From Pseudomonas triticicola (GTDB lineage Bacteria > Pseudomonadota > Gammaproteobacteria > Pseudomonadales > Pseudomonadaceae): DNA of 64,000 nt. Of this stretch, positions 4,358-21,136 are shown piece by piece. Under the pieces are notes generated by a model, which worked only from the letters and a program-made list of their open reading frames with translations, was not told the origin of the DNA and searched no databases. The translations under genes and the position numbers were made by a program. The DNA lies in assembly GCF_019145375.1 (NCBI RefSeq), contig NZ_JAHSTX010000001.1, forward strand, positions 434,001 through 498,000. Direction: 5' to 3'. Numbering within the stretch: the first letter of the stretch is position 1; each line of letters starts with the position of its first letter.

Positions 4358-5434
4358 GTGAAAATTCTAGTTACCGGCGGTGCCGGCTTCATTGGCTCGG
4401 CAGTCATTCGTCACATCATCTCCAACACTTCCGATGCAGTCGTTAACGTCGACAAGCTGACGTACGCCGGCAATCTGGAGTCCCTGGCAGAAGTCAGCCA
4501 GAATTCGCGTTACGCCTTCGAGCGCGTCGATATCTGCGATCGTGATCAGATCGACCGTGTCCTGCGTGAACACCAGCCCGATGCAATCATGCACCTCGCG
4601 GCAGAATCCCACGTAGACCGCTCGATCTCCGGCCCGTCCGAGTTCATCCAGACCAACATTATTGGCACCTACACGCTACTCGAAGCAGCGCGCCACTACT
4701 GGGCTGCGCTGGACGACACCCGCAAAGCCAACTTCCGCTTCCACCACATTTCGACTGACGAAGTTTACGGAGACCTCGAAGGTCCGGAAGACCTCTTCAC
4801 TGAAACCACGCCTTACCAGCCAAGCTCGCCATACTCCGCCAGCAAAGCCAGTTCTGATCACCTTGTTCGCGCCTGGGCCCGCACCTATGGCCTGCCGACA
4901 CTGGTGACCAACTGCTCGAACAACTACGGCCCATGTCACTTCCCAGAGAAGCTGATCCCGCTGATCATCCTCAACGCCCTCGAAGGCAAGCCGCTGCCGG
5001 TGTATGGCAAAGGCAACCAGGTCCGTGACTGGCTGTATGTCGAAGATCACGCGCGCGCATTGTACAAAGTCGTCACCGAAGGCGTGATCGGCGAGACTTA
5101 CAACATCGGTGGTCATAACGAAAAACAAAACATCGAAGTAGTGCATACCCTGTGTGCCTTGCTCGATGAGTTGCGTCCGGATTCGGCCCATCGTCCACAC
5201 GCCAGTCTGATTACTTATGTTCAGGATCGTCCTGGGCATGACGTGCGTTATGCAATTGATGCGAGCAAGATTCAGCGTGAGCTGGGATGGACGCCGGAGG
5301 AGACTTTTGAAACCGGTATTCGCAAGACTGTTGAGTGGTATCTCAATAACACTGAGTGGGTTGAGCACGTGAAGAGCGGTAGCTACCAGCAGTGGATTGA
5401 TCAGAACTATGCGGATCGTTCGAGCAAAGCATGA
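4358..5434 (+). CDS. rfbB: dTDP-glucose 4,6-dehydratase
   Basis: RmlB/RfbB, 358 residues, an extended short-chain dehydrogenase that turns dTDP-glucose into dTDP-4-keto-6-deoxyglucose, the second step of dTDP-L-rhamnose synthesis. It has the NAD motif GGAGFIG at residues 7-13, the STDEVYGDL motif and the catalytic YSASK at 159-163. The start is GTG at 4358, with AAGGG about 12 bases upstream, and gives the standard N-terminus ([10 protein letters not shown]). The stop overlaps the start of rfbD by 4 bp. It is the first gene of the surface-polysaccharide locus. Confidence 0.97.
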
Positions 5435-6324
5435 AGATACTGCTTCTAGGAAAGAGCGGTCAGGTTGGCTGGGAGCTGCAACGCTCCCTCGCTCCGCTTG
5501 GCGAACTCGTCTCTCTTGATCGTCATCTTGTCGATGGCCTCTGTGGTGATCTGTCCAATCTAGAAGCCTTGCGCGCGACAATTCGTCAGGTGAAGCCCGA
5601 CGTTATTGTTAATGCCGCTGCCTATACGGCGGTTGACAAGGCCGAGTCGGAAACCGAGCTGGCGGATCGCGTGAACGGTTTTGCAAGTGGCGTGATGGCG
5701 GAAGAAGCCGCATCGCTGGACGCATGGCTGGTTCACTACTCAACCGATTATGTTTTCAATGGCCAAGGCGTCATGCCATGGCAGGAGACAGACGCTGTTG
5801 CGCCGGTGAACCATTACGGTTCCAGCAAGCTAGCCGGCGAACAGGCAATCATCGCGTCGGGTTGCAAGTATCTGATCTTCCGTACTAGCTGGGTTTACGG
5901 AGCTCGCGGCAACAACTTCGCGAAGACCATGCTGCGCTTAGCGAAAGATCGCGAAGCGTTGAGCGTGATTGCGGATCAGATCGGAGCGCCGACGGGGGCT
6001 GATCTGATTGCTGATGTAACGGTGTTGGCTATCCAGCAAGTTCTGAGGCGTCCAGAGCTGGCCGGTCTCTATCATCTAGCCGCTGCCGGTGAAGTGTCCT
6101 GGCATGGCTATGCCACTCATGTCATTGACTTCGCAAAAGCCCAAGGCGAGGAGTTGGCTGTGACAACGGTCAATCCTATCGAGACTACTGCCTATCCGAC
6201 ACCTGCGCGTCGCCCTCTGAACTCACGTTTGAATACCCAGAAGCTGCGCGACAATTTTTCTCTACACTTGCCGGATTGGCAAAGTGGTTTAACCAGAATG
6301 CTTAGGGAAGTTTTGAACAAATGA
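5431..6324 (+). CDS. rfbD: dTDP-4-dehydrorhamnose reductase
   Basis: RmlD/RfbD, 297 residues, which reduces dTDP-4-keto-L-rhamnose to dTDP-L-rhamnose with NAD(P)H, the last step of the pathway. The N-terminal nucleotide motif is [10 protein letters not shown], the STDYVFNG motif follows, and the catalytic YGSSK is in the middle. It overlaps both neighbours by 4 bp (ATGA), so rfbB-rfbD-rfbA should be one translationally coupled transcript. Confidence 0.97.
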
Positions 6325-7211
6325 CCACGACAAATCGTAAAGGCATCATCCTCGCCGGCGGCTCAGGTACTCGTCTGCACCCGCTGACTCTTGGCGTATC
6401 GAAGCAGATGTTGCCGATCTACGACAAGCCGATGATCTTTTATCCGTTGTCGGTACTGATGCTTGCGGGTATGCGCGAGATCCTGATTATCTCCACTCCG
6501 GAAGATTTGCCATGTTTTCGCAAGTTGTTGGGCGATGGCAGCCAGTACGGTATCAAGCTTACCTACGCCGAACAGCCTAGTCCGGATGGTCTCGCCCAAG
6601 CGTTCATTATCGGAGAAGAGTTTATCGGCAAGGATCCTTGCTGCTTGATTCTGGGTGACAACATTTTCTACGGTCAGCATTTCTCGGATAACTTGCGCTC
6701 GGCAAGCTCTCAGCAGCAAGGTGCTACTGTATTCGGCTACCACGTGTCTGATCCGGAGCGTTTTGGTGTTGTCGAGTTCGATAAAGATGGCCGAGCGTTG
6801 AGCATTGAAGAAAAACCGCTGAAGCCCAAGTCGAACTATGCTGTAACCGGCCTGTATTTCTATGATAACGACGTCGTTGAAATCGCCAAGAACATCAAGC
6901 CTTCTGCACGTGGCGAGCTGGAAATCACCGACGTTAACCGTGCTTACCTTGAGCGAAAAACCCTTAACGTTGAGATGTTGGGCCGTGGTTTTGCGTGGCT
7001 GGACACCGGTACACATGACTCCCTGCTGGAAGCGAGTCACTTCGTGCATACCATCGAACATCGTCAGGGCTTGAAAGTCGCTTGCCTGGAAGAAATTGCC
7101 TATCACAACCGCTGGATCACTGCTCAGCAATTGGGCGCCCAAGCCGATGCGCTGAAGAAGACGGGCTACGGTCAGTACTTGCAAAAGCTTCTGGACTCGC
7201 CCTCTCACTGA
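6321..7211 (+). CDS. rfbA: Glucose-1-phosphate thymidylyltransferase
   Basis: RmlA/RfbA, 296 residues, which makes dTDP-glucose from glucose 1-phosphate and dTTP and so opens the dTDP-L-rhamnose pathway. The nucleotidyltransferase signature [11 protein letters not shown] is near residue 14, followed by [11 protein letters not shown] and later GDNIFYG. The length is normal. RmlC, the 3,5-epimerase needed between RmlB and RmlD, does not follow and is nowhere in this window, so it must be encoded elsewhere. Confidence 0.97.
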
Positions 7212-7266: not shown

Positions 7267-8190
7267 ATGCCAGTAAATTATCCCAAGGTCGCGGTTTTAC
7301 TGGCGGCCTACAATGGTGAGCAGTGGATCGAAGAGCAGTTGGCCTCGATCCTTCGCCAGTCGGCAGTTGAGTTGACGGTCTACATCAGCATCGATCCTTC
7401 CTCCGATGGCACTGAAGCTCTGTGCTGCGCTATTTGCGCTGAGCACCCAAGTGTTATTGTGCTGCCGGCCGCCGGCGTATTTGGCGGTGCTTCTCGTAAC
7501 TTCTTTCGCCTTATTCGTGATGTAGACTTTGACTGTTTTGACTTCGTCGCTTTTGCAGACCAAGATGATGTCTGGCACTCGAACAAGCTTCAGCGCGCCC
7601 TTCAAGCAATCGAGACGCATCGTGCAGACGCTTATTCGAGTAACGTGACGGCCTTCTGGCCGGATGGCAGGACTCACTTGCTGGACAAGGCACAGCCTCA
7701 GGTCGAATGGGATTTTTTGTTCGAGGCGGCGGGGCCGGGCTGCACCTATGTAATGAGCAGAAAGCTTGTCGATAGCCTGAAGGCTTCGATGCTGTCGCAT
7801 TGGCAGCTATTACAAAATGTGAGTCTGCATGATTGGTACTGTTACGCGTTTGCTCGGAGCAAAGGCTTTCGCTGGTACATAGACCCAGTCCCGTCTATGG
7901 ATTATCGCCAGCATGAGCGTAACCAGGTGGGGGCCAACAAGGGGTTGAGTTCGTTGATTGACCGCTACAGAACCATTCATGACGGTTGGTGGTTTAATCA
8001 GGTTCGATTGATAGCTCGGTTAGTTGGGCTTGGCAGTGATTCCTTTGTAAGGACATGGTTGAGCTTTCGTCGTCTCCAGTTGTTGACGCTCTCCTTCAGC
8101 GCCTGGCGTTGTCGGCGTCGTTTGCGCGATAAAGTTTTTTTCTTTTTTGTCTGCTGGATGACTGCTTTGATAGGACGGAAAACCAAATGA
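7267..8190 (+). CDS. Glycosyltransferase family 2 (rhamnosyltransferase-like)
   Basis: GT2 glycosyltransferase of 307 residues with a GT-A fold. The N-terminus reads VAVLLAAYNGEQWIEEQL, followed by SIDPSSDGT. The metal/nucleotide motif is FADQDDVWH near residues 96-104, and the conserved C-terminal segment is DYRQHERNQVGANKG. This arrangement is typical of O-antigen rhamnosyltransferases; acceptor and linkage cannot be read. It follows rfbA by 55 bases and overlaps the next gene by 4 bp. A paralogue with the same landmarks sits on the minus strand at 17767-18756. Confidence 0.85.
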   Translation: MPVNYPKVAVLLAAYNGEQWIEEQLASILRQSAVELTVYISIDPSSDGTEALCCAICAEHPSVIVLPAAGVFGGASRNFFRLIRDVDFDCFDFVAFADQDDVWHSNKLQRALQAIETHRADAYSSNVTAFWPDGRTHLLDKAQPQVEWDFLFEAAGPGCTYVMSRKLVDSLKASMLSHWQLLQNVSLHDWYCYAFARSKGFRWYIDPVPSMDYRQHERNQVGANKGLSSLIDRYRTIHDGWWFNQVRLIARLVGLGSDSFVRTWLSFRRLQLLTLSFSAWRCRRRLRDKVFFFFVCWMTALIGRKTK

Positions 8191-9143
8191 CTGCCCCCAA
8201 GGTGCTAGTGACAGGGGCGAGCGGCTTTGTTGGTGAGGCCGTGGTGTTAAAATTATTGGTTGATAAGAAGTTTTCGCCAATTGCGGCTGTTCGTGGTGCC
8301 AGCCGATTGCACGGGTTATGTCCTGCGGTAGCCTTTGACTTGACACACACCGTACTGCCAGATCTTGGCGACGTTCAGGTAGTTATTCATGCTGCAGCCC
8401 GCGTTCATGTCATGAATGAAACGTGCGTGGATGCCTTGATCGAATTTCGAAAGGTCAACGTTGAAGGGACCCTTAGACTTGCAAGGCATGCTGTGCAATC
8501 GGGCGTTAAGCGCTTCATTTTCATAAGCTCAATCAAGGTTAATGGCGAGAGCACAATCGTTGGGCAGCCTTTCACGGCCGATGATCAACCGAGACCACTG
8601 GATCCTTACGCAATATCCAAGTTCGAAGCGGAAGAAGCCCTAATGCAAATTGGCCAGAGCACAGGAATGGAGGTTGTGATCATCCGTCCTCCACTCGTTT
8701 ATGGTCCCGGCGTAAAAGCCAATTTTTTGAGTTTGCTGAGTCTGGCAAATACGGGAATTCCGCTACCGTTGGGGGCAATTCGAAATCAGCGAAGTCTCGT
8801 GGCGATTGGCAATCTGGTTAGTTTTGTTGTCACTTGTATTGATCATCCTCGCGCCGTTAATCAGAGATTTCTGGTCAGTGATGGGCAGGACTTGTCGACG
8901 ACACAACTGTTGCAGCGGTTATCGAAGGCACTAGGTAAACGCGTTTGGCTCCTGCCGATACCGGAACGGTTATTGAAACTGGCAGCGTTCATCTTGGGCA
9001 AGCAAGCGGTTGTCCAGAGGCTTTGTGGTTCATTGCAACTTGATATCGCCAAAAATCGAGAATTACTGGCATGGGTGCCCCCGGTGCGTATGCATCTTGC
9101 CATGCGCCGGACCGCTAGCCATTTTTTGGAAAAACAGACGTAA
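8187..9143 (+). CDS. NAD-dependent sugar epimerase/reductase, WbpV-like
   Basis: Extended SDR of 318 residues that acts on a nucleotide sugar. It has GASGFVG near residue 10, ISSIKVNGE, and the catalytic YAISK near residue 143. Its position directly before wbpL matches WbpV of P. aeruginosa, which helps make UDP-6-deoxy-HexNAc (QuiNAc) from the WbpM product; a 4-epimerase or 4-reductase role is therefore likely but not proven. The stop codon and the wbpL start share one base (TAATG), indicating coupling. Confidence 0.8.
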   Translation: MTAPKVLVTGASGFVGEAVVLKLLVDKKFSPIAAVRGASRLHGLCPAVAFDLTHTVLPDLGDVQVVIHAAARVHVMNETCVDALIEFRKVNVEGTLRLARHAVQSGVKRFIFISSIKVNGESTIVGQPFTADDQPRPLDPYAISKFEAEEALMQIGQSTGMEVVIIRPPLVYGPGVKANFLSLLSLANTGIPLPLGAIRNQRSLVAIGNLVSFVVTCIDHPRAVNQRFLVSDGQDLSTTQLLQRLSKALGKRVWLLPIPERLLKLAAFILGKQAVVQRLCGSLQLDIAKNRELLAWVPPVRMHLAMRRTASHFLEKQT

Positions 9144-10147
9144 TGAAAAGTTGGTGGTTTTTACTCCTGGTATTTGCAATGTCCTGGGGGCTGACTTTTT
9201 TCTTGCGTCGTTATGCGCTGGCGAAGAGTTTGATGGATATACCAAACGAGCGCAGTTCCCACACGATACCAACGCCACGTGGAGGAGGAGTCGCCATTGT
9301 GATCTCCTTTCTATTGGCTCTACCTGTTATCAGCGGTCTTGATTTGTTGAGCCACTCTGTTCTTTACGGGGTATTTGGCGCAGGCCTGTTCGTGGCCATC
9401 ATTGGATTTGCTGATGATCATGGACATATCGCCGCAAGGTGGCGACTGCTTGGACATTTCACTGCCGCTGCATGGGTGCTCTACTGGCTAAGCGGGCTGC
9501 CGCCGATCGGTTTTTTGGGGTTTACGGTAGATTTGGGCTGGTTCGGTAATACTTTAGCGGTGGTATATCTTGTCTGGATGCTGAATCTATACAACTTCAT
9601 GGACGGAATTAACGGATTGGCGAGTATCGAAGCTATCAGTGCCTGCGTGGGGATGTGTCTGATTTATTGGTGCCTCGGGCGTGTTGAACTGATTTGGCTG
9701 CCGTTGATTCTGGCGACTGCAGTGGCGGGGTTCATGTACTGGAACTTTCCACGTGCGCGGATCTTTATGGGTGATGCGGGAAGTGGGTTTATCGGAATAG
9801 TTCTAGGTGGAATGGCGCTACAGGCAGCGCATATTTCGATCGAGTTGTTTTGGAGTTGGCTCATTCTCCTCGGTGTTTTTATTGTTGACGCCACCTGGAC
9901 GCTGATCCGGCGCTTGGTACAAGGCGAGAAGTTGTATCAAGCACATCGTAGTCACGGATATCAAAAAGCCGCTCTCCGATGGGGGCACCAGCGAGTGACC
10001 TGGATGGTGGCAATCCTGAATATTGGTGTTTTGCTTCCGGTGGCAGCATTGGTGGCCACAGGTGTGTTCGATGGCATGCTCTCAATATTGGTGACTTATG
10101 CCTGCCTCTCGTACCTGGCGTATATGGCGAAAGCAGGTATTAAGTAG
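9143..10147 (+). CDS. wbpL: WbpL-like undecaprenyl-phosphate HexNAc-1-P transferase
   Basis: Polytopic MraY/WecA-family enzyme of 334 residues. It transfers a HexNAc 1-phosphate to undecaprenyl phosphate on the inner membrane and so primes O-polysaccharide. Recognisable motifs are the IPNERSSHTIPTPRGGG loop, FADDHGHI (aspartates near residue 90), NLYNFMDGINGLA and FMGDAGSGF. About ten hydrophobic segments are visible. WbpL is the known initiating enzyme for both O-antigen types in P. aeruginosa. It ends the first half of the locus; the next 1 kb has no convincing gene. Confidence 0.92.
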   Translation: MKSWWFLLLVFAMSWGLTFFLRRYALAKSLMDIPNERSSHTIPTPRGGGVAIVISFLLALPVISGLDLLSHSVLYGVFGAGLFVAIIGFADDHGHIAARWRLLGHFTAAAWVLYWLSGLPPIGFLGFTVDLGWFGNTLAVVYLVWMLNLYNFMDGINGLASIEAISACVGMCLIYWCLGRVELIWLPLILATAVAGFMYWNFPRARIFMGDAGSGFIGIVLGGMALQAAHISIELFWSWLILLGVFIVDATWTLIRRLVQGEKLYQAHRSHGYQKAALRWGHQRVTWMVAILNIGVLLPVAALVATGVFDGMLSILVTYACLSYLAYMAKAGIK

Positions 10148-11162
10148 CGATGTCTTGTCACGCGGGGAGTGGCAAATCTGTTGTGATCAGGTCGGTTAAT
10201 GATCAGCGCGCAGGCGTCTTTGCGGCTTGGGTGCTTCGCCGAGTCTACAAGGGATCTGTTGTAGCAACGATGGCTTGCTGTCTTACGAACGGGAGGCACC
10301 GTCTTCGCTCTCGGCCCCGTCTCACCATATAGGCAGCCCCATGCTGATTGAGTTTTGGTGAGTCTGACTCTGAGAGTGATTATCAAGGATTTTTGACCGT
10401 AATCCCTGGTAAAACCGGATTGTAGATAACGCTTTTTACTGGGATAATCTCTTCTTTTTATGCTCGCATTCAGTATTTCTGATAGAAAAGGGTGGTCAAT
10501 CCTAGGGGAGGGTGTCTAGTTTTATGATGAATTCGCTTCTCCGTCATGAATCACCCGCCTGTCAGTGATTGTTTCAAGGTAAATATTTTGTCTCAGTTCT
10601 GTCCATATAGCGGCTTGGCGGCATGTATCAATTGGTTCAGACCGTTTGGGTATAAGATTTAGCTTAACCACATGTTTTCTGCTGATCGCTGGAATTGCAT
10701 TCTATGAAGTGCAAATGGTCGTGATCGTAAAGGCATTGAGCCATCCCTTCGCATTGGTTTGGAAATTTCCGGCTTAATCGTATGAACATGGATACAGCGA
10801 GCCATCATCAGGCTTCATCGACCTCCACGATAGTGGGCCTGCACAAACCGCTCACCACTCGCAGTCCGAAGTCGCCTTCGGAGGCTAGTGTAGGGGTGTC
10901 AAAAAAACATCTTTCAGCTTTACATGCTTTGCAGGCTTTCAGCTCAAGTAGCGAAAAGCCTTTGAGCGTGCCTTCCCAGCGCATCAATTGTTCGCGAATC
11001 TTTGCATCGCCCTTTGGCGTCTGGCATTTGCAGCTTTCATATGTGCCAGCAACGTCCGCGAGCATAATCTCTCAAGAAAATATCACCAAACATACAGTTC
11101 TGGTGACAGCTTTATTATGAGCGTTTTTTTCTTTTTTTAATTTGTAAGAACAGGAATTCTTA
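10148..11162. other. About 1 kb without a convincing gene, within the O-antigen locus
   Basis: Between wbpL and wzm no reading frame looks like an ordinary protein on the plus strand. The base composition shifts from GC-richer near wbpL to clearly AT-rich just before wzm (a long T run near 11126-11140). A 7-bp hairpin, TCCGAAG/CTTCGGA, is at 10865-10882. One minus-strand reading frame (10808-11065) is listed separately. The stretch probably contains the promoter for wzm and may be the scar of a cassette exchange. Confidence 0.6.
10808..11065 (-). CDS. Possible small ORF or gene remnant, unrecognised
   Basis: An open frame of 85 codons with ATG at 11065. The N-terminal half reads like real protein (CKCQTPKGDAKIREQLMRW) and is followed by ACKACKAERCFFDTPT. 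The Shine-Dalgarno is weak (GAGAG). It runs against the direction of all neighbouring genes except the one at 17767, with no partner. I do not recognise a family. It could be a remnant of an older gene or a chance frame; the overlapping plus-strand frame looks less protein-like. Confidence 0.25.
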   Translation of the reverse strand: MLADVAGTYESCKCQTPKGDAKIREQLMRWEGTLKGFSLLELKACKACKAERCFFDTPTLASEGDFGLRVVSGLCRPTIVEVDEA

Positions 11163-12017
11163 ATGAAGGATTTAGTTGAGATTATTAATCCACACGCTAG
11201 AAGGTCAATTACGTTAAGAGGGCTTCTCGGGAGTTTGTGGCGAAATAAGCGATTGATTTCGCAGATGACAAAAAGAGAAGTCGTCGGACGATATAAAGGA
11301 TCCGCTATGGGCTTGGCGTGGTCGTTTTTTAATCCGATCGTTATGCTCGCTGTGTACACCTATGTTTTCTCTGAAATATTTAAAACCCGCTGGGTAGGGA
11401 CCGCTGCGGACGAAAGCAAGGCGCAATTTGCGTTGATTCTGTTTGTCGGTATGATCGTGCAAGGACTTTTTGCAGAGGTTTTCAACAAATCGCCGGGTTT
11501 GATCATTTCTAATGTTAATTACGTTAAGAAAGTTGTTTTTCCTTTGGAGATTCTCCCAGTAATCACGTTGGGAGCGGCACTGTTCCATAGTTTGGTAAGT
11601 TTTCTGGTTCTGATAATGGCGCTTTTCATTTTCAAAGGATCGGTGCACTGGACAGCTATCTTCATGCCAGTTGTAATCTTTCCGTTGATTGTCATGATCA
11701 TGGGTTTTTCGTGGTTTCTGGCGTCGCTCGGTGTTTTTGCTCGCGACATAGGACAGTTCACCGCGATTATCACCACGGTACTCACATTCCTGTCTCCGGT
11801 TTTTTACCCTGTCTCCGCCGTTCCAGAGGCTTTCCGCCCATTCATGATGGCAAACCCCCTGACGTTCATCATTGAACAGGCGAGGGAGGTGCTCATATGG
11901 GGCCATTTGCCTGACTGGACAGGCCTGTCTGTATATATGTTGACGGCTACAGTTTTTGCTTGGGCAGGTTTTGCCTGGTTTCAGAAAACACGAAAAGGTT
12001 TTGCCGATGTCCTCTGA
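11163..12017 (+). CDS. wzm: O-antigen ABC transporter permease
   Basis: ABC-2 type permease of 284 residues, the membrane half of the polysaccharide exporter that moves finished undecaprenyl-linked O-chain across the inner membrane. About six hydrophobic segments are visible. The N-terminal signature LISQMTKREVVGRYKGSAMG is typical of the Wzm/KpsM/TagG group, and a conserved FLSPVFYPVSAVPE lies before the last segment. AGGA stands 8 bases before the ATG. It overlaps the ATPase gene by 11 bp. The coding sequence is noticeably AT-rich compared with rpsA or kdp, suggesting transfer. Confidence 0.93.
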   Translation: MKDLVEIINPHARRSITLRGLLGSLWRNKRLISQMTKREVVGRYKGSAMGLAWSFFNPIVMLAVYTYVFSEIFKTRWVGTAADESKAQFALILFVGMIVQGLFAEVFNKSPGLIISNVNYVKKVVFPLEILPVITLGAALFHSLVSFLVLIMALFIFKGSVHWTAIFMPVVIFPLIVMIMGFSWFLASLGVFARDIGQFTAIITTVLTFLSPVFYPVSAVPEAFRPFMMANPLTFIIEQAREVLIWGHLPDWTGLSVYMLTATVFAWAGFAWFQKTRKGFADVL

Positions 12018-14082
12018 TCAAATTGCAATACGCGTGACGAATGTCAATAAACGCTATGAGATTTATGGCGCGCCATTGGATCGGCTAAAGCAATTTGTTT
12101 TGCCTCGTGTTCGGTCTCGTGAGCAGAATGGGGAGCGCCGCAAATACTTTGATGAATTTTGGGCGTTGAAGGATGTCTCCTTCGAGATAAAACGCGGCGA
12201 AACCATTGGTGTTATCGGTCGTAACGGTAGTGGCAAGTCTACACTTTTACAAATGATCTGCGGGACCCTGACTCCAACAAGTGGAGAAATTGAAACCCGT
12301 GGCAGAATTGCTGCATTGCTTGAATTGGGCTCTGGATTTAATCCCGAATTCACCGGACGTGAAAACGTCTATATGAATGCAGCAATCCTGGGTCTCACGA
12401 AAGAAGAAATCGACGAGAAGTTCCACGATATCGAATCATTTGCTGATATAGGGCATTTCCTCGATCAGCCTGTAAAGACATATTCAAGTGGTATGGTCGC
12501 AAGGCTGGCGTTTTCGGTAGCGGTACAAGTGGATCCCGATATTCTAGTGGTTGACGAGGCGCTAAGCGTCGGCGACATGGCTTTTCAGGAGAAGTCCTTC
12601 ACACGAATGAAGAAAATTCGCGATGCTGGAACGTCGATTCTGTTCGTGTCGCACTCAACATCAGCCATTCGAAATTTCTGCGATCGCGCTATTTGGCTCG
12701 ACAGAGGTGTGGTGCGGTCAATTGGTGAGCGTCAAAGCGTTTGCGACCTGTATCAAACGGAAATGGAATCGGAAATACGCAAGGAAAACAACACGCCAAC
12801 AGCGGCTCTTAACCAACCACTCGCCGCACCGTTCGTGCCGAGAGCCAAAACGATATCTATCGTTTCAGTCTCAATCGATAAACCTTCCTACAAGATGGGA
12901 GAAGACATACGGGTTGACGTGAAGCTGGCGTTCTCGGATGTAGTTCCGACTTACGGCATTGGATTGATCATTTATGATGCAAACGAGAAAGTGGTTACGA
13001 TTCTCAGCAGCCTGAGAGATGACCTGTTTTTCTCCTCGGCTAAACCCGGTGTTTCTCTAGTCATTAGAAATAATAATTTTGTACCTGGTTCATACAGAGC
13101 CACCCTCTCTGTCTCTGATGAGCAGGGTATGTTTTCTTACGATAAGCTCGAGTCATGCTTCAAGTTCGAAGTCGATATGGAACGTAGTTCGCGTGGCCTT
13201 GCGAAAGTTGATGGCATGCTCAGGTCTGACCATGAATGGATTGATAATTCCGGCTGGAGCCTGAATGAGGGTGAGGCCCTCTGGGTGCGTCCGGGTCTAC
13301 CCTCCAGGACTGGTGACAAGGTTCCTCTACTAGTATTGCTGAGGGTGCGTAATGAGGAGCTTATTCTAAAAGATACGCTCGACCATCTTTCGACGTTTGC
13401 TGACTATATCTGTGTATACGAAGATGCCAGTACGGATAGTACTCGCGAGATACTGAAATCTTGCGAGAAAGTCGTGCTCATTGTAGAAAACAACCACTGG
13501 CAATCTGGGATTGATAATCGCCTTCTATCTGAAACCCGGCATCGTGGGATGCTTCTGGATTTTGCTCGTCTACACTTTGATTTTCAATGGTGCATGTGTT
13601 GCGACGCTGATGAACGCTATATCGGTCCCATCCGTGAGTATGTGACTGCGTCTCCGGAAATGAAGCCGGAAGCGGTCAGGATACAACTATTCGACGCTTA
13701 TATGACCCCGGGAGATGATGCGCCTTACTTGCCGGGAACACCGCTGTTGAACTTTCGGCGGTACTTCGGTGTGGAACGACGAGATATCTTGATGCTGTGG
13801 CAGAACAACGACACTGTGAAGTTTCAGGGGTTGGATGCCAGGGAGCCGGTTGTTTCAGGTGTTACGGACGTCAACTTTTATTGCCAGCATTATGGCAAGA
13901 GTCTCTCGTATGAACATTGGGATGCAACGTGTGATTACTACAGTGCGAATTTTCCCTGGATACCTTACGGGGAGAAGTGGTCGAAACGGAAGGGGCATGC
14001 GCTCCATGATTTATCCGATTTTGGCCGCGAATTGCACCAGTGGTGCGTCACGTTGTTTGAAAACTCAATAAAGATTAATTGA
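12007..14082 (+). CDS. wzt: Wzt export ATPase fused to a C-terminal glycosyltransferase
   Basis: 691-residue protein with three parts. Residues about 1-250 are an ABC ATPase of the polysaccharide-export type: Walker A GRNGSGKST near 71, signature YSSGMVARLAF near 159, Walker B ILVVDEALSVGD near 178. Residues about 285-395 look like the Wzt C-terminal beta-sandwich that binds the O-chain end. From about 439 to the end is an extra domain that looks like a GT2-type glycosyltransferase: LLVLLRVRNEELILKDTL, then EDASTDST, then CDADERY near 531. Ordinary Wzt proteins end after the second part (about 400-450 residues). I chose ATG 12007 because it gives the normal N-terminus (MSSDQIAIRV); it overlaps wzm by 11 bp. 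What sugar the extra domain handles is unknown. Confidence 0.9.
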   Translation: MSSDQIAIRVTNVNKRYEIYGAPLDRLKQFVLPRVRSREQNGERRKYFDEFWALKDVSFEIKRGETIGVIGRNGSGKSTLLQMICGTLTPTSGEIETRGRIAALLELGSGFNPEFTGRENVYMNAAILGLTKEEIDEKFHDIESFADIGHFLDQPVKTYSSGMVARLAFSVAVQVDPDILVVDEALSVGDMAFQEKSFTRMKKIRDAGTSILFVSHSTSAIRNFCDRAIWLDRGVVRSIGERQSVCDLYQTEMESEIRKENNTPTAALNQPLAAPFVPRAKTISIVSVSIDKPSYKMGEDIRVDVKLAFSDVVPTYGIGLIIYDANEKVVTILSSLRDDLFFSSAKPGVSLVIRNNNFVPGSYRATLSVSDEQGMFSYDKLESCFKFEVDMERSSRGLAKVDGMLRSDHEWIDNSGWSLNEGEALWVRPGLPSRTGDKVPLLVLLRVRNEELILKDTLDHLSTFADYICVYEDASTDSTREILKSCEKVVLIVENNHWQSGIDNRLLSETRHRGMLLDFARLHFDFQWCMCCDADERYIGPIREYVTASPEMKPEAVRIQLFDAYMTPGDDAPYLPGTPLLNFRRYFGVERRDILMLWQNNDTVKFQGLDAREPVVSGVTDVNFYCQHYGKSLSYEHWDATCDYYSANFPWIPYGEKWSKRKGHALHDLSDFGRELHQWCVTLFENSIKIN

Positions 14083-14083: not shown

Positions 14084-17000
14084 ATGAGTCAGACTGAACC
14101 GAATAAAAAAAAGGCGCTGGTGGCCTGTTCAAGGCTGGTGGATTTCGCGGGTGCAGAGATTGCCACCTTGGAAATTGCCACTACCTTGGCTGATCTTGGT
14201 TTTGATGTTGTGCTTGCTGCGCTTGAGGTCGGTGGCGCCATTGAGTCCGAATTAAACGCCGCTGGGATTTCCTATGTTGATTTATCAGTCACTCGCTTGA
14301 GTAATGCGAGTTTTGATTTTGTATGGCTAACGCATTACGTTGTCGTCTATCAATTATTCGCCCGGGATCGGATATCGGCGAAGAGCGGGTTTTATTCTTC
14401 GCTATCACACTTTGAGCCTCTCGAAAGTCCACCAGTCCCCAGTATCTTTTTCTCCCAGTATCTGGTCCACTCGCAAGAAAATTTTGAACACTTTTCTCAG
14501 AAATACCCTCAGTTTGTCGGAAGAGTCAGCATCTTTCCTAACTCCTCTCCGGAGGGGTATTTCCAGATGCCACGGCGCGCGATCTCCAGCACGCTTGAGT
14601 CAGTGTGCATTGTCTCAAATCATGCACCTGATGAAGTTCTTGAACTGGTCGGTTTACTTGAGGCGCGCGGAATTGACGTCGACATAATTGGTATTCAAGG
14701 CACACCTGAGCGGGTGACCCCGGAAGTTTTAGGCCGTTACAGTGCTGTTATAACCATCGGCAAAACAGTGCAGTATTGCTTGGCTGGAGGCGTGCCCGTT
14801 TATTGTTATGATCGTTTTAGCGGACCGGGTTGGATCACGCCAGCTGTCGTAGCCCAAGCCTCTGAGAGGAATTTTTCTGGTAGATGTACTCCGGTAAAGA
14901 AGTCGGCTTCACAAATTGTCGATGAATTGATTATAGGGTATCGTTCCGTTTTGGAGCAGTCCGAAGTACTTAAAAATATTGCCAACGAAAGATACTCACT
15001 CAAGAATAATGTAGCCAAGCTTATTGAGACTTTTGATCGGCTGCCTATGTGCGTAACTCTTTCGGAGACCGAGATTGAGGTTCTCTCCAAGGACTCAGAA
15101 ACCTTTTGTTCGCAGCGCAATGTTATAAGAAACTACCAGGAAGTTGTTAAGAATTCTGAATTAAGGTTGAGCCTCCTCGCCAAATCGGAACATGAGAAAG
15201 AAATAAAGATGAATGAGATTAGTAAAGCGTTGGCCGATCGGGAAGCTCAAATTGATCTCGTTACTTCAACGCTCGCAGATTTCGAGGATAAAATTGCGCG
15301 GTTGACTAGCGTTTTAGGCAGTCGGGAGATGGATGTTGAATCGTTCAATATGATCCTCGCAAATCGAGAGGAAAAGAATGTTGCAACCTCAGCTGCCGTG
15401 ACGGAGGTCACTGACCAGATTATTCTCGATCGTTATATTACTCAAAAGGAGTCGCAGATCTCCATTTTCAGTAAAGTCCTTTCCGAGCGAGAAGCAGAAG
15501 TTGCAAGATTGAACCAAGAGCTTTCTCTATTACGGCAGGAGTTAAAGCAGTCGCTGGAATCGAGTAAGTCCAATGCCAGCAGTACTGATGATCGGCTTGC
15601 TGAGCTGGAGCGTTGTCTGGCGTTGTCTCGTGAAGAGTTGCGAGCCGTTTTGAACTCCAATAGCTGGAAAATCACCTCTCCGGTTCGTCGTCTAGCAACA
15701 AAGTTTTCGCTGAAAATAGCGTATTTGAAATTGCTGGCCAGGAATTCTGTGTTTGTTCTGCGGCAAGAAGGAGTGTCGGCGTTTGTTCGTCGGACCGGCA
15801 GTTTTTTAGTACGTCGCAGACAGCGCAAGATCGCGTCTTCAGCGCTGGAGCGGTTTAGCCGGGAAAGAGATGTTTTGGGCGCGAATCCAGCGCCTCTGGT
15901 TTCATTTGTCATACCTATTTACGATCGGGTCGATGTACTGCGAGTCACTGTCAATTCAGCGCTTGCTCAGACGCAGCAGGTATTTGAAGTCATATTGGTC
16001 ACTGACGGTTCGCCTGCCCAGACCATGGCGGTCGTGGAGGAATTTCGGAATAACCCTCTTGTAAGAATTTTTAGTTTCCCCACTAGTTCCGGAAACGCAG
16101 TGCGTGGCCGAAATAAGGGGATTCTCGAAGCCAAGGGTAAATATATTGCATTTCTGGATAGCGATGATATTGCAGCCCCTGATCGCTTGGAAGTATGCCT
16201 TCCAATTCTCGAGTCGGGTGTAGATGTCGTTTATGGCGGTTGGCGAGCACTGTTGGATGGTAGTCGTGAAATTGATGGACTCGTTAATGGTCAGGAGGTT
16301 TACAGTCCTGATTGTGATTTGAGCATGCTGGAAAAAGTCTGTGTTCCTTGCCAAAGTACGGTGATGGTAAGAAGAGAAGTACTTCTGAATACGGGGTTTC
16401 TGAAACACAAAATGGAGTACCGTGAGGACCACGAATTGTGGTTGCGCCTCGCTTACAATGGCGCGAAGTTCAAATCCGTTCCTCACGTATTGACTGATCT
16501 CCGATTGCATGCCGGGAATAATGAGCTGAATTTCAAGGATAATGACGGTCATTGGGAAACTCTGCTTAAAGAAGAGTATCGGAGAAAGGGGCCTGTGCCT
16601 AAAAAAATAGCCTTTTTACTCGCTGGGCTGGGTATTTCGGGTGGTGCTGCAGTTGTCCTGAAGCATGTAAGTCTGCTCATTGAGGAAGGTCACGATGCGT
16701 TCGTGATAGATTTGGGTGGCTACGGAGATATTCAATGGTTTGGGAACCCGGCAATTCGCGTATATACCATAAATGATATATACCAGTGTGGTGTCGATAA
16801 CATCGATATGCTCTTCGCTACATTCTGGACGACAGTCGAATGGCTTGAGAAGATTCAAGCCAAGAGGAAACTGTATCTGGTGCAGTCTGATGAGCGTCTT
16901 TTTTATGATGATTATTTATTAAAAGAGCGCGTCGAACAGACTTATAAGAAGGATATTGAGTATGTCGGTATCGCGCAGTGGATTGTCGATTTTTTAAGAT

Positions 17001-17584
17001 TGGAGTTTGGTCATTCTCCAGTCTACTTACCCAATGGTCTGGACCCGGCATTATTTTATCCAGATTCCCCTTTACAGGAAAAGAATCCCACGCGTTTGCG
17101 CGTATTGATTGAAGGACCTATTTCAGTCCCGTTCAAAGGTATGGCCGACGCTTATGCCGCCGTTAGCGGACTCGATTGCGACTTGTGGATAGTCAGCAGT
17201 GATGGCATGCCTGAACCGCATTGGCAACATGAGCGTTTCTTCCAGAAGGTGAAACAGGAAGACATGCGGAGAATATATTCGTCCTGTGATATTTTGCTGA
17301 AGATGAGCAAGATAGAGAGCTTTGCATATCCTCCACTTGAAGCCATGGCCTGCGGCTGCACGGTTGTCATCATGGATGTTAACGGCGGTATTGAGTATGC
17401 AGTTGATGGGGTGAACGTCTTGAAGGTCGGAAAGGGCGATATCCAGGGTGCGCGACAGGCTGTCAAGAGTTTGCTCGATGATGATTCGCTACGTAACAAG
17501 TTGAGGCAGGCCGGCTTCGATACCGTGCAAAATTGGACTTGGGACCCAGCGAAGAAAGTATTGGCCGAGTTGACATCATCTTGA
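14084..17584 (+). CDS. Multidomain glycosyltransferase with central coiled coil
   Basis: 1166 residues, no signal peptide. Residues about 1-330 resemble a GT4-like Rossmann region (VACSRLVDFAGAEIATLEIA) but lack an obvious donor-site motif. About 366-525 is a heptad-rich coiled coil with an imperfect repeat around L..RE (KALADREAQI, SVLGSREMDV, KVLSEREAEV). SWKITSPVRRL near 523 is the linker often seen before GT domains. About 604-800 is a GT2 domain (PLVSFVIPIYDRVDV, then FLDSDD). About 839-1166 is a GT4/GT-B domain with VPFKGM near 1016 and SKIESFAYPPLEAMACG near 1075. It starts two bases after the wzt stop. Probably a polymerising O-chain glycosyltransferase; rhamnose as donor is an inference from the rml genes. 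Confidence 0.85.
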   Translation: MSQTEPNKKKALVACSRLVDFAGAEIATLEIATTLADLGFDVVLAALEVGGAIESELNAAGISYVDLSVTRLSNASFDFVWLTHYVVVYQLFARDRISAKSGFYSSLSHFEPLESPPVPSIFFSQYLVHSQENFEHFSQKYPQFVGRVSIFPNSSPEGYFQMPRRAISSTLESVCIVSNHAPDEVLELVGLLEARGIDVDIIGIQGTPERVTPEVLGRYSAVITIGKTVQYCLAGGVPVYCYDRFSGPGWITPAVVAQASERNFSGRCTPVKKSASQIVDELIIGYRSVLEQSEVLKNIANERYSLKNNVAKLIETFDRLPMCVTLSETEIEVLSKDSETFCSQRNVIRNYQEVVKNSELRLSLLAKSEHEKEIKMNEISKALADREAQIDLVTSTLADFEDKIARLTSVLGSREMDVESFNMILANREEKNVATSAAVTEVTDQIILDRYITQKESQISIFSKVLSEREAEVARLNQELSLLRQELKQSLESSKSNASSTDDRLAELERCLALSREELRAVLNSNSWKITSPVRRLATKFSLKIAYLKLLARNSVFVLRQEGVSAFVRRTGSFLVRRRQRKIASSALERFSRERDVLGANPAPLVSFVIPIYDRVDVLRVTVNSALAQTQQVFEVILVTDGSPAQTMAVVEEFRNNPLVRIFSFPTSSGNAVRGRNKGILEAKGKYIAFLDSDDIAAPDRLEVCLPILESGVDVVYGGWRALLDGSREIDGLVNGQEVYSPDCDLSMLEKVCVPCQSTVMVRREVLLNTGFLKHKMEYREDHELWLRLAYNGAKFKSVPHVLTDLRLHAGNNELNFKDNDGHWETLLKEEYRRKGPVPKKIAFLLAGLGISGGAAVVLKHVSLLIEEGHDAFVIDLGGYGDIQWFGNPAIRVYTINDIYQCGVDNIDMLFATFWTTVEWLEKIQAKRKLYLVQSDERLFYDDYLLKERVEQTYKKDIEYVGIAQWIVDFLRLEFGHSPVYLPNGLDPALFYPDSPLQEKNPTRLRVLIEGPISVPFKGMADAYAAVSGLDCDLWIVSSDGMPEPHWQHERFFQKVKQEDMRRIYSSCDILLKMSKIESFAYPPLEAMACGCTVVIMDVNGGIEYAVDGVNVLKVGKGDIQGARQAVKSLLDDDSLRNKLRQAGFDTVQNWTWDPAKKVLAELTSS

Positions 17585-17766: not shown

Positions 17767-18756
17767 CTATATCTTGTTAAAAAGAATTGCGAGACAAAGG
17801 CTGATGTTCCCTTTTAGTGTCTGCCGGTAGATTCCGGATTTTTTTAACAGATAAATTCTTTTAAAAAAATTGCTTTCACGACCTTGCTTGAACTCATTAA
17901 TCGTTTTTCTACTGGTCGCTGTTAATTCAGTTTCTACGCAGTCGAGTACCTTGAGGTTTGAATCGCTCCAATTGCGAAACTGTCCATCGATTACTTTTCC
18001 GAATCTGATGATGCGTTCCTTGATTCCGCTATTGGCGCCAATCACGTTACCGCTATGTTGTCGATAGTCCAGTGTTGGTTGGATGTCATAAATTACTTTG
18101 CCACCACAACCACTGGTTAAGAGATATGTCAGCCAGTCATGCGCAATGATGTTGATATCTGCAGGTATGCAATTCAAAAGCTTTCGTGTTGAATTGTTTA
18201 TAAGCATCGTATTAGCACCCGCGATGCTCTGAATCAATGCATTCTGAAAGTTCGGGTTTCGAATGAATTTCGGAGAATAGCCGATAATATTTCGATTCTC
18301 ATCAATCAATCGAGTGCGCGAACAATACATGGCTGGCAGGTTTTGCGGTAATAACTTTAATTGATCAATACTTCGTTCCAGCTTGTCCGGGAACCAGATG
18401 TCATCCTGATCGCTGAAAGCAAAATAATCCGCGACTATTTGATCGTTCCTGATAAGCGATATAAAGTTTTGGGCAAACCCGGTGCGAGGTCCGGTGAATA
18501 TTTTAATGCGATTTTTCGCAATAAGATTCCTGTATTCTTCGAACACGGCGAGTGTGCCATCGCTGGATCCATCATCAGACACATAAAGCGTCCAGTTTTT
18601 ATGGGTTTGCGCTATGAAAGACTCAATTTGTTCTTTGAGAAATGGCCGCCCGTTGTAGGTGCAGAGAAGAATGGCCACTTCAACAGCAGACGCCCCATCG
18701 GCGGGGGACTCCACGGAGTGAGTCAGTTGAAGGGCTTGCGGCGTTGGGTGCTCCAT
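17767..18756 (-). CDS. Glycosyltransferase family 2, reverse-strand paralogue
   Basis: GT2 glycosyltransferase of 329 residues. It has EVAILLCTYNGRPFLKEQI near residue 26, SDDGSSDGT, FSDQDDIWFPDKL near 118, and the C-terminal landmark LDYRQHSGNVIGANSG. These landmarks match the plus-strand GT2 at 7267-8190 one for one, so the two are paralogues of the same rhamnosyltransferase-like group. GAGGA precedes the ATG at 18756. It is the only reliable reverse gene in the O-antigen locus and is AT-rich, which suggests independent acquisition. The 275 bases upstream (18757-19031) hold only promoter space shared with wbpM. Confidence 0.85.
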   Translation of the reverse strand: MEHPTPQALQLTHSVESPADGASAVEVAILLCTYNGRPFLKEQIESFIAQTHKNWTLYVSDDGSSDGTLAVFEEYRNLIAKNRIKIFTGPRTGFAQNFISLIRNDQIVADYFAFSDQDDIWFPDKLERSIDQLKLLPQNLPAMYCSRTRLIDENRNIIGYSPKFIRNPNFQNALIQSIAGANTMLINNSTRKLLNCIPADINIIAHDWLTYLLTSGCGGKVIYDIQPTLDYRQHSGNVIGANSGIKERIIRFGKVIDGQFRNWSDSNLKVLDCVETELTATSRKTINEFKQGRESNFFKRIYLLKKSGIYRQTLKGNISLCLAILFNKI

Positions 18757-19031
18757 GCGTCCTCACACTTGAAATATTGAGTTATGACTACTACAAAAAA
18801 AGCACGCTGATGGCTTCTTGATATCGTTTTGCATGAATAATACTCGCTGAACGCTAATTTTATCTGTCCGAAGGGTTAAATCTCTACTCTTTTGCGCTTT
18901 AATGGAGTGCGCTCGTTAGCCCATGTCTAGTCTGGCAACACTCTGTGCTGTTGCATGTCGGGTAGGATGTAAAACGGGAGTGACATCTTTGGCTGGTCGG
19001 AGCAACCGAGATTGAAATGGAACATCGTGTA

Positions 19032-21026
19032 ATGGACAAATTGCGACTTTTCCTCCTTAGGATGCCGCGTCAGAGAAAACGTCTGATTCAGGTAGTGATG
19101 GACGTGTTTCTGGTCTGGATTTCATTGTGGGGCTCCTTTGTGGTTCGTTTGGGGATCGAGGATGTCTTGGATCCTCTCAGAACCCATCTCTGGTTGTTTA
19201 TTTGCGCCCCGATAGTCGCGATTCCCCTGTTCATCCGCTTCGGCATGTACCGTGCGGTCATGCGATATTTCGGGAATGACGCGCTGATCGCGATCATCAA
19301 GGCCGTCAGCCTTTCCTCCCTCATTCTTGCGCTGGTCGTCTTCTGGTACAGCAATCATCAGGCTGTCGTGCCGCGCTCGATCATCTTCAACTATTGGTGG
19401 TTGAGTCTGGTGATAATCGGCGGATTGCGACTTTGCATGCGCCAATACTTCATGGGCAACTGGTTCACTGCCGCTCAGCACGTACCGTTCGTCAACCGCG
19501 AAGACGGTCTAACCAAGGTGGCTGTTTACGGTGCGGGTGTCGCGGGTAATCAATTGGTCGCAGCTCTGCGTATGGGGCGTGTCATGCGTCCGGTGGCATT
19601 CATCGACGATGACGCGAGTATTTCCGAGCGATCAATTTCCGGCCTCCAAGTCTATAAACCCAAACACATCCAACAGATGATTGATGAGACCGGCGCACAG
19701 GAAATTCTTCTGGCTCTACCTTCCTCTACGCGTGCCAGGCGGAGGGAAATATTGAATCTGCTCGAAGGTTTCCCGCTTCACGTGCGGAGTGTCCCCAGTT
19801 TCAGCGATTTGGCCAGTGGGCGTGTCAAAGTGGAGGATATTCAGGAGGTCGATATTGCCGACCTGCTTGGTCGTGATGCAGTACCGGCACAGTCGGATCT
19901 TCTGGAGCGCTGTGTCAAAGGCAAGGTTGTGATGGTCACCGGTGCCGGCGGTTCGATCGGCTCTGAACTCTGTCGGCAGATTTTCGCTTTGGCTCCGACC
20001 ACGCTAATTTTATTCGAACACAGCGAGTTTAACCTTTATACGATTGCGTCAGAGCTGGAAGGCCGCGGGTGCCGTGAATCGGCGCCAGTTCGACTGCTGC
20101 CAATTCTTGGATCTATTCGTCATCAGGAAAAGCTTCTCGATGTAATGAATACCTGGAGGGTAGATACCGTTTATCACGCTGCCGCTTATAAGCATGTGCC
20201 GATGGTTGAGCACAACATTGCTGAAGGTGTTCTCAACAACGTAATAGGTACGCTCAATACCGCTCAGGCTGCTTTGCAATCAGGCGTTTCGAACTTTGTC
20301 CTGATTTCGACTGACAAGGCCGTTCGTCCAACCAATGTCATGGGTAGCACAAAACGCCTGGCAGAGTTGACGCTTCAAGCCTTGAGTCGGGAGATTGCAC
20401 CGGTGCTGTTTGGTGATAAATCCAATGTTTCGCGAGTAAATAAAACCCGGTTCACCATGGTGCGTTTCGGTAATGTGCTGGGCTCCTCCGGTTCTGTGAT
20501 CCCGCTGTTCCACAGTCAGATAAAGTCCGGCGGACCGTTGACGGTTACTCATCCAAAAATCACTCGATACTTTATGACCATTCCTGAAGCCGCGCAGTTG
20601 GTTATCCAGGCCGGCTCATTGGGGCAGGGGGGAGATGTATTCGTCCTGGATATGGGAGAACCGGTAAAAATCGTCGAGCTTGCAGAAAAAATGATCCACC
20701 TTTCCGGTTTGAGTATTCGTTCCGAACGCAATCCTCAAGGTGATATCTCTATCGAGTTCACCGGGCTGCGCCCAGGTGAAAAACTCTACGAGGAGCTGCT
20801 GATCGGCGACAACGTGGCCGCTACACCCCATCCGATGATCATGACAGCAAGTGAAGATCACTTGCCTTGGGATGTGCTCAAGAACCGGTTGCATGATTTA
20901 CTGGTTGCGGTTGAGAAGGATGATTACTCACGCGTCCGCCAACTCCTGCGCGAAACCGTCTCCGGCTACACCCCCGATGGCGAAATCGTTGACTGGATCT
21001 ACCAGCAACGTCGCCTCGAGCCCTGA
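19032..21026 (+). CDS. wbpM: UDP-HexNAc 4,6-dehydratase, membrane-bound
   Basis: WbpM family, 664 residues, very close to the length of the P. aeruginosa protein. It makes the UDP-4-keto-6-deoxy-GlcNAc precursor of QuiNAc/FucNAc. The N-terminus has four hydrophobic segments up to about residue 130. A first Rossmann motif (VYGAGVAGNQLV) is near 165 and the catalytic SDR domain starts at TGAGGSIGSELC near 303. TDKAVRPTNVMGSTKR carries the Met-Lys pair that replaces the usual Tyr-Lys in this family. An in-frame ATG at 19017 would add five residues; 19032 (MDKLRLFLLRMPRQ) fits the family better. wbpM conventionally closes Pseudomonas O-antigen loci. Confidence 0.95.
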   Translation: MDKLRLFLLRMPRQRKRLIQVVMDVFLVWISLWGSFVVRLGIEDVLDPLRTHLWLFICAPIVAIPLFIRFGMYRAVMRYFGNDALIAIIKAVSLSSLILALVVFWYSNHQAVVPRSIIFNYWWLSLVIIGGLRLCMRQYFMGNWFTAAQHVPFVNREDGLTKVAVYGAGVAGNQLVAALRMGRVMRPVAFIDDDASISERSISGLQVYKPKHIQQMIDETGAQEILLALPSSTRARRREILNLLEGFPLHVRSVPSFSDLASGRVKVEDIQEVDIADLLGRDAVPAQSDLLERCVKGKVVMVTGAGGSIGSELCRQIFALAPTTLILFEHSEFNLYTIASELEGRGCRESAPVRLLPILGSIRHQEKLLDVMNTWRVDTVYHAAAYKHVPMVEHNIAEGVLNNVIGTLNTAQAALQSGVSNFVLISTDKAVRPTNVMGSTKRLAELTLQALSREIAPVLFGDKSNVSRVNKTRFTMVRFGNVLGSSGSVIPLFHSQIKSGGPLTVTHPKITRYFMTIPEAAQLVIQAGSLGQGGDVFVLDMGEPVKIVELAEKMIHLSGLSIRSERNPQGDISIEFTGLRPGEKLYEELLIGDNVAATPHPMIMTASEDHLPWDVLKNRLHDLLVAVEKDDYSRVRQLLRETVSGYTPDGEIVDWIYQQRRLEP

Positions 21027-21088
21027 TTGTTTCACATCCTGTAACGCTCGCATTTTTGACTTCCCTTCATCATGACCTACGTTTGGAG

Positions 21089-21113: not shown

Positions 21114-21136
21114 AAAACGATGATGGAGCGTCACTT

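What the first reader, a model, noticed from the sequence alone, without database searches (positions are those of the whole stretch)
12007..14082. Wzt export ATPase fused to a glycosyltransferase domain
An ABC ATPase, a Wzt-type carbohydrate-binding domain and a GT2-like domain with DAD-type residues sit in one uninterrupted 691-residue frame. In well-studied ABC-dependent O-antigens, a separate enzyme adds the terminal cap that the Wzt C-terminal domain reads. Here the sugar-adding domain is attached to the reader, suggesting capping and export licensing in one protein. The fusion is seen; the role is inferred.
Basis: partly seen in the sequence, partly recalled or inferred. Interest (0 to 1): 0.75.

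Follow-up and report, generated by a model that had tools for sequence, protein, structure and literature searches.

The report
O-antigen exporter ATPase fused to glycosyltransferase
In this Pseudomonas, the ATPase that exports the surface O-antigen sugar chain is joined to a sugar-adding enzyme that many relatives carry as a separate neighbouring gene, and the pair may finish the end of the chain before export.

Summary
The fusion is real. One open 691-residue frame (12007-14082, +) holds an ABC ATPase, a Wzt-type carbohydrate-binding domain and a GT-A glycosyltransferase with intact DAD motif. Nine other full-length relatives (62-83% identical), P. khorasanensis and two P. gingeri genomes share it, so it is no sequencing error.

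It derives from a widespread gene pair. Of 57 loci in GTDB genomes, 6 are fused and 20 have a separate wzt in the flank, usually directly upstream; fusion arose at least twice. A GT4-like protein, often with a probable coiled coil, accompanies 25 of those 26; here it opens the next, 1166-aa protein.

Capping is plausible but unproven. For: Anoxybacillus tepidamans GS5-97 has wzt-GT-GT4, and MurNAc/GlcNAc cap its glycan. Against: in Klebsiella and E. coli the terminator sits on the coiled-coil protein, here the neighbour; 31 of 57 loci show no Wzt in the flank held; two linked Wzt are too short for a binding domain; co-variation is not specific to it. My reading: the domain adds one chain-end residue, alongside the neighbour's GT4 domain.

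The parts
12007..14082 (+). Fused gene, 691 aa: Wzt ATPase + carbohydrate-binding domain + GT-A glycosyltransferase
12166..12564 (+). ABC ATPase (Pfam ABC_tran, residues 54-186); Walker A GRNGSGKST, signature YSSGM, Walker B ILVVDE (motif names recalled)
12889..13200 (+). Wzt_C carbohydrate-binding domain (residues 295-398; below the Pfam cut-off here, above it in several relatives)
13225..13245 (+). Fusion junction: corresponds to the short wzt/GT gene overlap of unfused relatives; the former GT start codon is still legible, out of frame
13234..14079 (+). GT-A glycosyltransferase domain, residues 410-691 (PF13704); D533, D535, E536, D563 and H628 conserved
11163..12017 (+). Wzm, ABC-2 membrane subunit (PF01061), overlapping the fused gene by 11 bases
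14084..17584 (+). 1166-aa multidomain glycosyltransferase immediately downstream
14105..15073 (+). GT4-like N-terminal domain of the 1166-aa protein; a homologue accompanies the wzt-GT pair in 25 of 26 linked loci
15053..15679 (+). Probable coiled coil (residues 324-532; home-made heptad test), candidate chain-length ruler
15902..17515 (+). C-terminal GT2 (607-767) and GT4 (1051-1144) domains, perhaps the polymerase
4358..7211 (+). rmlB, rmlD, rmlA-type genes (dTDP-rhamnose precursors; two rmlC-family genes lie elsewhere in the genome)
7267..8190 (+). GT2 glycosyltransferase
8187..9143 (+). NAD-dependent epimerase/dehydratase
9143..10147 (+). WbpL/WecA-type initiating sugar-phosphate transferase (PF00953; name recalled)
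17767..18756 (-). GT2 glycosyltransferase on the opposite strand
19017..21026 (+). WbpM-type dehydratase (PF02719; name recalled), end of the locus

Best explanation
The gene is a fixed fusion of two neighbouring genes, wzt and a GT-A glycosyltransferase of the GT2 kind, that in unfused relatives usually overlap by a few bases (shown). The ATPase and carbohydrate-binding domains pair with Wzm to export the lipid-linked O-antigen (inferred from homology). The glycosyltransferase adds one residue of a chain-end structure at the non-reducing end, together with the GT4-like domain that begins the next protein, and the binding domain then recognises the finished end (inferred). Fusion would hold the enzyme beside the loading site; that it changes the order or fidelity of the steps is speculation. 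From A. tepidamans the guess is that this domain adds a beta-linked HexNAc (GlcNAc) and the GT4 domain an alpha-linked one (MurNAc).
For: Conserved full-length fusions. At least two origins of the fusion on the tree (2 changes, forced by starred branches). Gene order wzm-wzt-GT-GT4 in Pseudomonadota, Nostoc, Bacillota and candidate phyla; a Wzm in 26 of 26 Wzt-linked loci, the GT4 homologue in 25 of 26, within 100 bp in 21. Of 107 Wzt and 105 GT database clusters compared, 42 pairs share a longest-contig length; shifted lengths give mean 0.58, maximum 4. GT and Wzt distances co-vary (r 0.90 with the binding domain, 0.89 with the ATPase, 71 pairs). GT-A fold, motif intact. No methyltransferase or kinase terminator among the 11 proteins of the rml-to-wbpM locus scanned. 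L036 is A. tepidamans DSM 16325 = GS5-97 (PMC11407518, passage); a review citing work on that strain lists MurNAc and GlcNAc as capping elements (PMC2943079, passages); its cluster has wzm, wzt, GT and GT4-coiled coil in a row and no methyltransferase among ten proteins scanned; its WsaF-like protein is probably the one called a retaining fucosyltransferase (PMC3898925, passage), leaving these two for other steps. Closest profile matches are GmaR and ThuS/SunS; that these use UDP-GlcNAc or UDP-glucose, and that GT2 enzymes invert and GT4 enzymes retain, is recalled.
Against: By the published rule the terminator is on the coiled-coil protein (PMC11231755), i.e. the GT4 neighbour, so this domain may be an adaptor or polymerase enzyme. 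31 of 57 GT loci have no Wzt in the flank held (some contigs are short, and for one, L059, a wzm-wzt-rml cluster lies about 24 kb away), and in 7 of 7 such alphaproteobacterial genomes the GT4 partner gave no match (no positive control). L060 and L061 have a Wzt of 242-244 aa. Partial correlation of GT with the binding domain given the ATPase is 0.49 over 71 pairs but 0.07 in the 19 GTDB loci, where it is 0.48 with the ATPase given the binding domain. In L018, L065, L067, L068 and L069 the GT shares a frame with the GT4-like domain, not with Wzt. L045's neighbour also has a methyltransferase domain. No O-antigen structure from a fusion carrier was seen.
Confidence: 0.48

Rival explanations
1. 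The glycosyltransferase domain is an ordinary adaptor or repeat-unit enzyme (for example a rhamnosyltransferase). The neighbour's GT4-coiled coil is the terminator, and the fusion only keeps a pathway enzyme near the exporter.
For: Terminators in Klebsiella O3, O4, O5, O7 and O12 lie on coiled-coil proteins (PMC11231755, passages); the window's 1166-aa protein has a probable coiled coil after its GT4 domain. In L018, L065, L067, L068 (weak, 28.5 bits) and L069 the GT shares a frame with the GT4-like domain instead of Wzt. rml-type genes lie in the window.
Against: rmlA/B/D homologues of at least 120 bits lie in the held flanks of only 9 of 26 Wzt-linked loci, so the module seems to travel with different polymers; a module shared across polymers fits a common end structure better than a repeat unit, but also fits an adaptor.
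Confidence: 0.35
2. The joining itself is a neutral by-product of gene overlap: a small change in the overlap joined two frames, and the fusion works as the two separate proteins do. (This can hold together with either reading of the enzyme's role.)
For: By the starts my script chose, 13 of 17 unfused pairs overlap by 4-29 bases and one more by a single base; in the window the former start codon persists out of frame. Fusion is rare: 2 of 398 genomes in the genus, and of 369 in the class only the window's own strong match.
Against: It persists over lineages down to 62% identity and arose at least twice.
Confidence: 0.45
3. Assembly or frameshift error joining two genes.
For: Two of the listed Pseudomonas entries are shorter (P0011, P0012).
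Against: Many independent sequences share the frame.
Confidence: 0.01
4. The gene makes two products, full-length and a separate glycosyltransferase by internal initiation.
For: An in-frame ATG lies at 13216; in P. gingeri L014 that codon is GTG, also a possible start.
Against: In the fusion P0004 the residue there is alanine, and the former glycosyltransferase start is out of frame.
Confidence: 0.06

Closest known systems
Wzt of ABC-dependent O-antigens with a cap-binding domain (E. coli O9a, Aquifex aeolicus)
   Same: ABC ATPase plus Wzt_C domain beside Wzm; best solved relative by sequence is 8dku, E 6.5e-68 over residues 7-263
   Different: Carries a further ~280-residue glycosyltransferase; A. 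aeolicus Wzt reads a methylated sugar cap (PMC9445017, abstract and passages)
Terminator enzymes WbdD, WbbB and K. pneumoniae O4 ORF7 (GT137)
   Same: Candidate chain-end enzyme in an ABC-exporter locus whose Wzt has a binding domain
   Different: In the passages seen the terminator is on a protein with a coiled-coil ruler and none is described as joined to Wzt (PMC11231755); no coiled coil was found in the fused protein
Anoxybacillus/Geobacillus tepidamans GS5-97 S-layer glycan cluster
   Same: wzm-wzt-GT-GT4-coiled coil in the same order
   Different: wzt and GT are separate, overlapping genes; the product is an S-layer glycan, with MurNAc/GlcNAc listed as capping elements (PMC2943079)
SunS/ThuS and GmaR, GT2-type glycosyltransferases
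   Different: 15-20% identity to SunS/ThuS; they modify peptides or proteins (entry titles or recalled)

Membership tests
Wzt with cap-binding domain | ABC ATPase with Walker A, signature and Walker B | tested here: met
   PF00005 87.8 bits; motifs
Wzt with cap-binding domain | C-terminal Wzt_C domain (PF14524) | tested here: met
   23.6 bits, E 5.4e-05 in the window, below the 30.4 cut-off, as in L013 and L014; listed by the database for the 83% identical fusion P0002 and for P0006-P0010, and above cut-off in L016, L036, L045, L047
Wzt with cap-binding domain | Adjacent Wzm membrane subunit | tested here: met
   11163-12017, PF01061 94.1 bits
Wzt with cap-binding domain | Binds the modified chain end and exports only capped chains | not testable with these tools
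   Needs binding and export assays
GT2-like GT-A glycosyltransferase (PF13704) | Family profile over cut-off | tested here: met
   42.9 bits against 27.5
GT2-like GT-A glycosyltransferase (PF13704) | GT-A fold with DXD-type motif | tested here: met
GT2-like GT-A glycosyltransferase (PF13704) | Sugar transfer activity, donor and linkage | not testable with these tools
   Needs enzyme assay
Coiled-coil chain terminators (WbdD/WbbB/GT137 type) | Extended coiled coil in the terminating protein | tested here: not met
   No segment in the fused protein; residues 324-532 of the neighbour have one (home-made heptad test)
Coiled-coil chain terminators (WbdD/WbbB/GT137 type) | Adds the terminal residue that stops growth | not testable with these tools
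   Needs enzyme assay or chain-end analysis

The most novel reading that the evidence does not exclude
Writer and reader in one protein: the glycosyltransferase adds a terminal HexNAc next to a second end residue added by the neighbour's GT4-coiled coil, making a two-sugar export ticket that the binding domain on the same chain checks. This would be a first sugar-cap writer covalently joined to its exporter, with the unfused wzt-GT-GT4 trio as a general but uncharacterised termination module across several phyla.
Probability: 0.35. Interest if true: 0.75.

Novelty: new variant of a known kind. Interest (0 to 1): 0.5.

Why it matters
How ABC exporters tell finished chains from unfinished ones rests on few models, with caps of methyl, phosphate or Kdo. 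A conserved wzm-wzt-GT-GT4 set across phyla, fused to the exporter in at least two lineages, points to enzymes for another kind of chain end, and A. tepidamans, whose cap has been described, makes the idea directly testable.

Tried and rejected
Full-length AlphaFold2 with 12 sequences was poor (pLDDT 57.9, pTM 0.39) and was not used; the glycosyltransferase was folded alone. That first model was of P0001, which differs from the window at 3 of 691 residues.

Testing whether the glycosyltransferase co-varies specifically with the carbohydrate-binding domain failed to discriminate. It used 42 pairs inferred from equal longest-contig length, the 10 full-length entries and 19 GTDB loci. Left out of the length comparison: the 12 GT clusters P0227-P0238 of the 118 new ones, and P0122, which has no contig length. 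Left out of the locus set: L013-L015, L050 and L060-L062.

The genome-contig scan is pattern-based (74 stretches matched, 57 confirmed), so its frequencies are lower bounds, and records near the window may be left out. Class survey: 4 of 369 genomes matched; the 3 besides the window's own had E 1.4e-4 to 5.4e-4 and are not counted as members. One search returned nothing in 7 genomes and has no positive control. The coiled-coil test is a home-made heptad count: it flagged a segment in 13 of 20 relatives' proteins, but the one in L065 lies inside the glycosyltransferase domain.

Whole-genome look for a Wzt in 7 genomes with an unlinked GT: all have ABC matches; the best is 58% identical over 1-252 in G398 (B. 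barranii), which lies about 24 kb from the GT copy L059 and beside wzm and rml genes. The best matches in the other six are E 3e-45 to 1e-15.

Literature on a Wzt-glycosyltransferase fusion: none of the titles or abstract starts listed (none found; 20 of 74 shown) and 81 describes one, nor do the passages seen of PMC4483657 and PMC5462993; the library holds only CC-licensed papers, so this is not proof of absence. sought MurNAc caps and added nothing beyond PMC2943079. Kahlig 2005 and Zayni 2007 are not held; the detail that the terminal rhamnose of A. tepidamans carries alpha-MurNAc at O3 and beta-GlcNAc at O2 is recalled from the abstract.

Rfam at gathering thresholds found nothing in the 10.1-11.2 kb gap.

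Full report
Observation. The frame 12007-14082 (+) is open for 691 codons. Pfam finds ABC_tran (54-186), Wzt_C (295-398, below its cut-off here) and Glyco_tranf_2_4 (448-537) in order. By sequence the best solved relatives of the N-terminal part are the ABC transporter chains 8dku and 7k2t (E 6.5e-68 and 1.7e-67). The first ten proteins of the homologue list are full length: the window's near-copy P0001 (3 of 691 residues differ) and nine others at 62-83% identity, one named P. gingeri. The window's genome holds one copy. The nearest genome with a name is P. khorasanensis SWRI153 (L013; 685 of 690 residues compared identical).

Locus. The gene lies between cmk-, rpsA- and ihfB-like genes (365-3864; the ihfB name comes from reading the sequence) and a wbpM-type gene with a comEA-like gene after it (19017-21472). 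Between them are rmlB, rmlD, rmlA, a GT2, an epimerase, a WbpL-type initiator, wzm, the fusion, a 1166-aa glycosyltransferase and a GT2 on the other strand (gene names partly recalled). No rmlC was seen among the frames listed; the genome has two rmlC-family genes elsewhere. GC is 46-51% from 8 to 20 kb against 57-65% after 22 kb. No methyltransferase or kinase of the known terminator kinds was found among the 11 proteins of this locus that were scanned.

Where the fusion came from. Searching with the glycosyltransferase alone found 797 proteins, of about 255-440 aa in the 120 listed (longer proteins were outside its length range). In the GTDB scan 57 loci encode it: 6 fused to Wzt (three Pseudomonas; L045, L047, L050 from unnamed bacteria, the last two nearly identical on the tree), 20 with a separate Wzt of at least 250 bits in the flank, 31 without. 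For 17 of the 20 the glycosyltransferase starts between 28 bases before and 48 after the end of the wzt stop codon, 13 of them overlapping by more than one base; L056 is 2 kb away, L060 has the domain inside a 927-aa frame that begins about 0.6 kb after wzt, and in L062 wzt follows (starts chosen by my script). In the Pseudomonas fusions the junction falls on the overlap, and the former start codon is still readable out of frame (window and L014). On the tree the fused label needs two changes, both forced by well-supported branches.

The third partner. The N-terminal ~330 residues of the 1166-aa protein have homologues in 25 of 26 Wzt-linked loci (21 within 100 bp; the exception, L050, ends at a contig edge; in L060-L063 the homologue is 1.2-3.1 kb away) and in 4 of the 31 others, L065, L067, L068 and L069, in one frame with the glycosyltransferase. 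L018 has the same joining, downstream of a separate wzt. A home-made heptad test flags residues 324-532 of the window's protein as a probable coiled coil, and a segment in 13 of 20 relatives tested, one of which (L065) is inside the glycosyltransferase.

Function. The paper on Klebsiella O4 and O7 (PMC11231755, abstract and passages) states that in each such complex the terminator is in the coiled-coil protein, and that the binding domain on Wzt reads the terminal epitope. By that rule the neighbour's GT4 domain is the first candidate for the terminator, and the fused domain is an additional enzyme. The best hint that both make the end structure is L036: it is the type strain of A. tepidamans, DSM 16325 = GS5-97 (PMC11407518, passage). 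A review gives N-acetylmuramic acid and N-acetylglucosamine as capping elements at the non-reducing end, citing the work on that strain (PMC2943079, passages). From recall of the abstract of the original paper (not held), the terminal rhamnose bears an alpha-linked MurNAc and a beta-linked GlcNAc. A retaining GT4 and an inverting GT2-type enzyme side by side would fit those linkages; this is inference. The WsaF-like gene of the cluster is probably the one named as a retaining fucosyltransferase in PMC3898925 (passage), so these two enzymes are left for other steps, though not by proof.

Results against. The glycosyltransferase occurs without Wzt in the held flank in 31 of 57 loci; 25 of these are one alphaproteobacterial clade (Bradyrhizobium, Hyphomicrobiaceae and L039; support 100/99) nested among Wzt-linked ones. 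For 7 such genomes no GT4 partner was found. Of two neighbourhoods looked at, L025 holds transposases, a kinase of the amino-acid kinase family and an epimerase-like frame, and L038 yebC and a two-component system; neither shows a polysaccharide cluster among the proteins scanned. L059 is a partial exception: a wzm-wzt-rml cluster lies about 24 kb from it. L042 and L064 sit on short contigs (5-7 kb), L042 at the very end. Two Actinomycetota loci, L060 and L061, have a Wzt of only 242-244 aa, judged too short for the binding domain. Distance correlations are about equally high with the ATPase and with the binding domain, and in the 19 GTDB loci only the ATPase correlation survives partialling (0.48 against 0.07). 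L045's neighbour has a methyltransferase domain.

Frequency. In the genus 2 of 398 genomes have the domain, both fused; in the class, of 369 genomes only the window's own gives a strong match.

Novelty. The ingredients are known families; a joining of Wzt to a glycosyltransferase was not seen in the titles and abstract starts listed (one search listed none). Public databases already hold such proteins under generic names (P0005). I rate it a new variant of a known kind, interest 0.5; the wider wzt-GT-GT4 set is the more valuable part.

Noticed in passing
L014:6487-7815 and L015:6486-7811: P. gingeri has a second complete wzt (442 aa; Wzt_C 103 bits in L014) just upstream of wzm and the fused wzt-GT, with only one wzm found in the held stretch: two ATPases for one channel, or a second wzm further off.
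   Followed up: partly
L016:309-2634 and 7824-9921: A Comamonadaceae locus has two wzm-wzt pairs within 10 kb, the second followed by the glycosyltransferase.
   Followed up: no
L023-L028, L030-L035, L037-L041, L044, L048, L049, L051-L053, L059, L066: 25 alphaproteobacterial copies of this glycosyltransferase form one clade without wzt in the held flank; L025 sits by an amino-acid-kinase-family gene and insertion elements, L038 by yebC and a two-component system. Their role is unknown.
   Followed up: partly
L059 and L084:10608-12798: In Bradyrhizobium barranii a second, shorter-matching copy of the glycosyltransferase lies about 24 kb from an rml-wzm-wzt cluster.
   Followed up: partly
window 15053-15679: Probable coiled coil of about 210 residues inside the 1166-aa glycosyltransferase, candidate chain-length ruler.
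   Followed up: partly
window 10148-11162: One-kilobase gap between the initiator gene and wzm, also in L013; no Rfam match and only one frame of 100 aa or more on record (112 aa).
   Followed up: partly
window 49592-49736 (-): Pseudomonas sRNA P14 (Rfam RF01669, 123.6 bits).
   Followed up: no
P0012: A 439-aa Pseudomonas sp. GM17 entry begins in the linker before the binding domain and lacks the ATPase; whether this is annotation or a truncated gene was not checked.
   Followed up: no
L045:4803-8615: The protein after the second kind of fusion combines GT4, methyltransferase and two GT2 domains.
   Followed up: no
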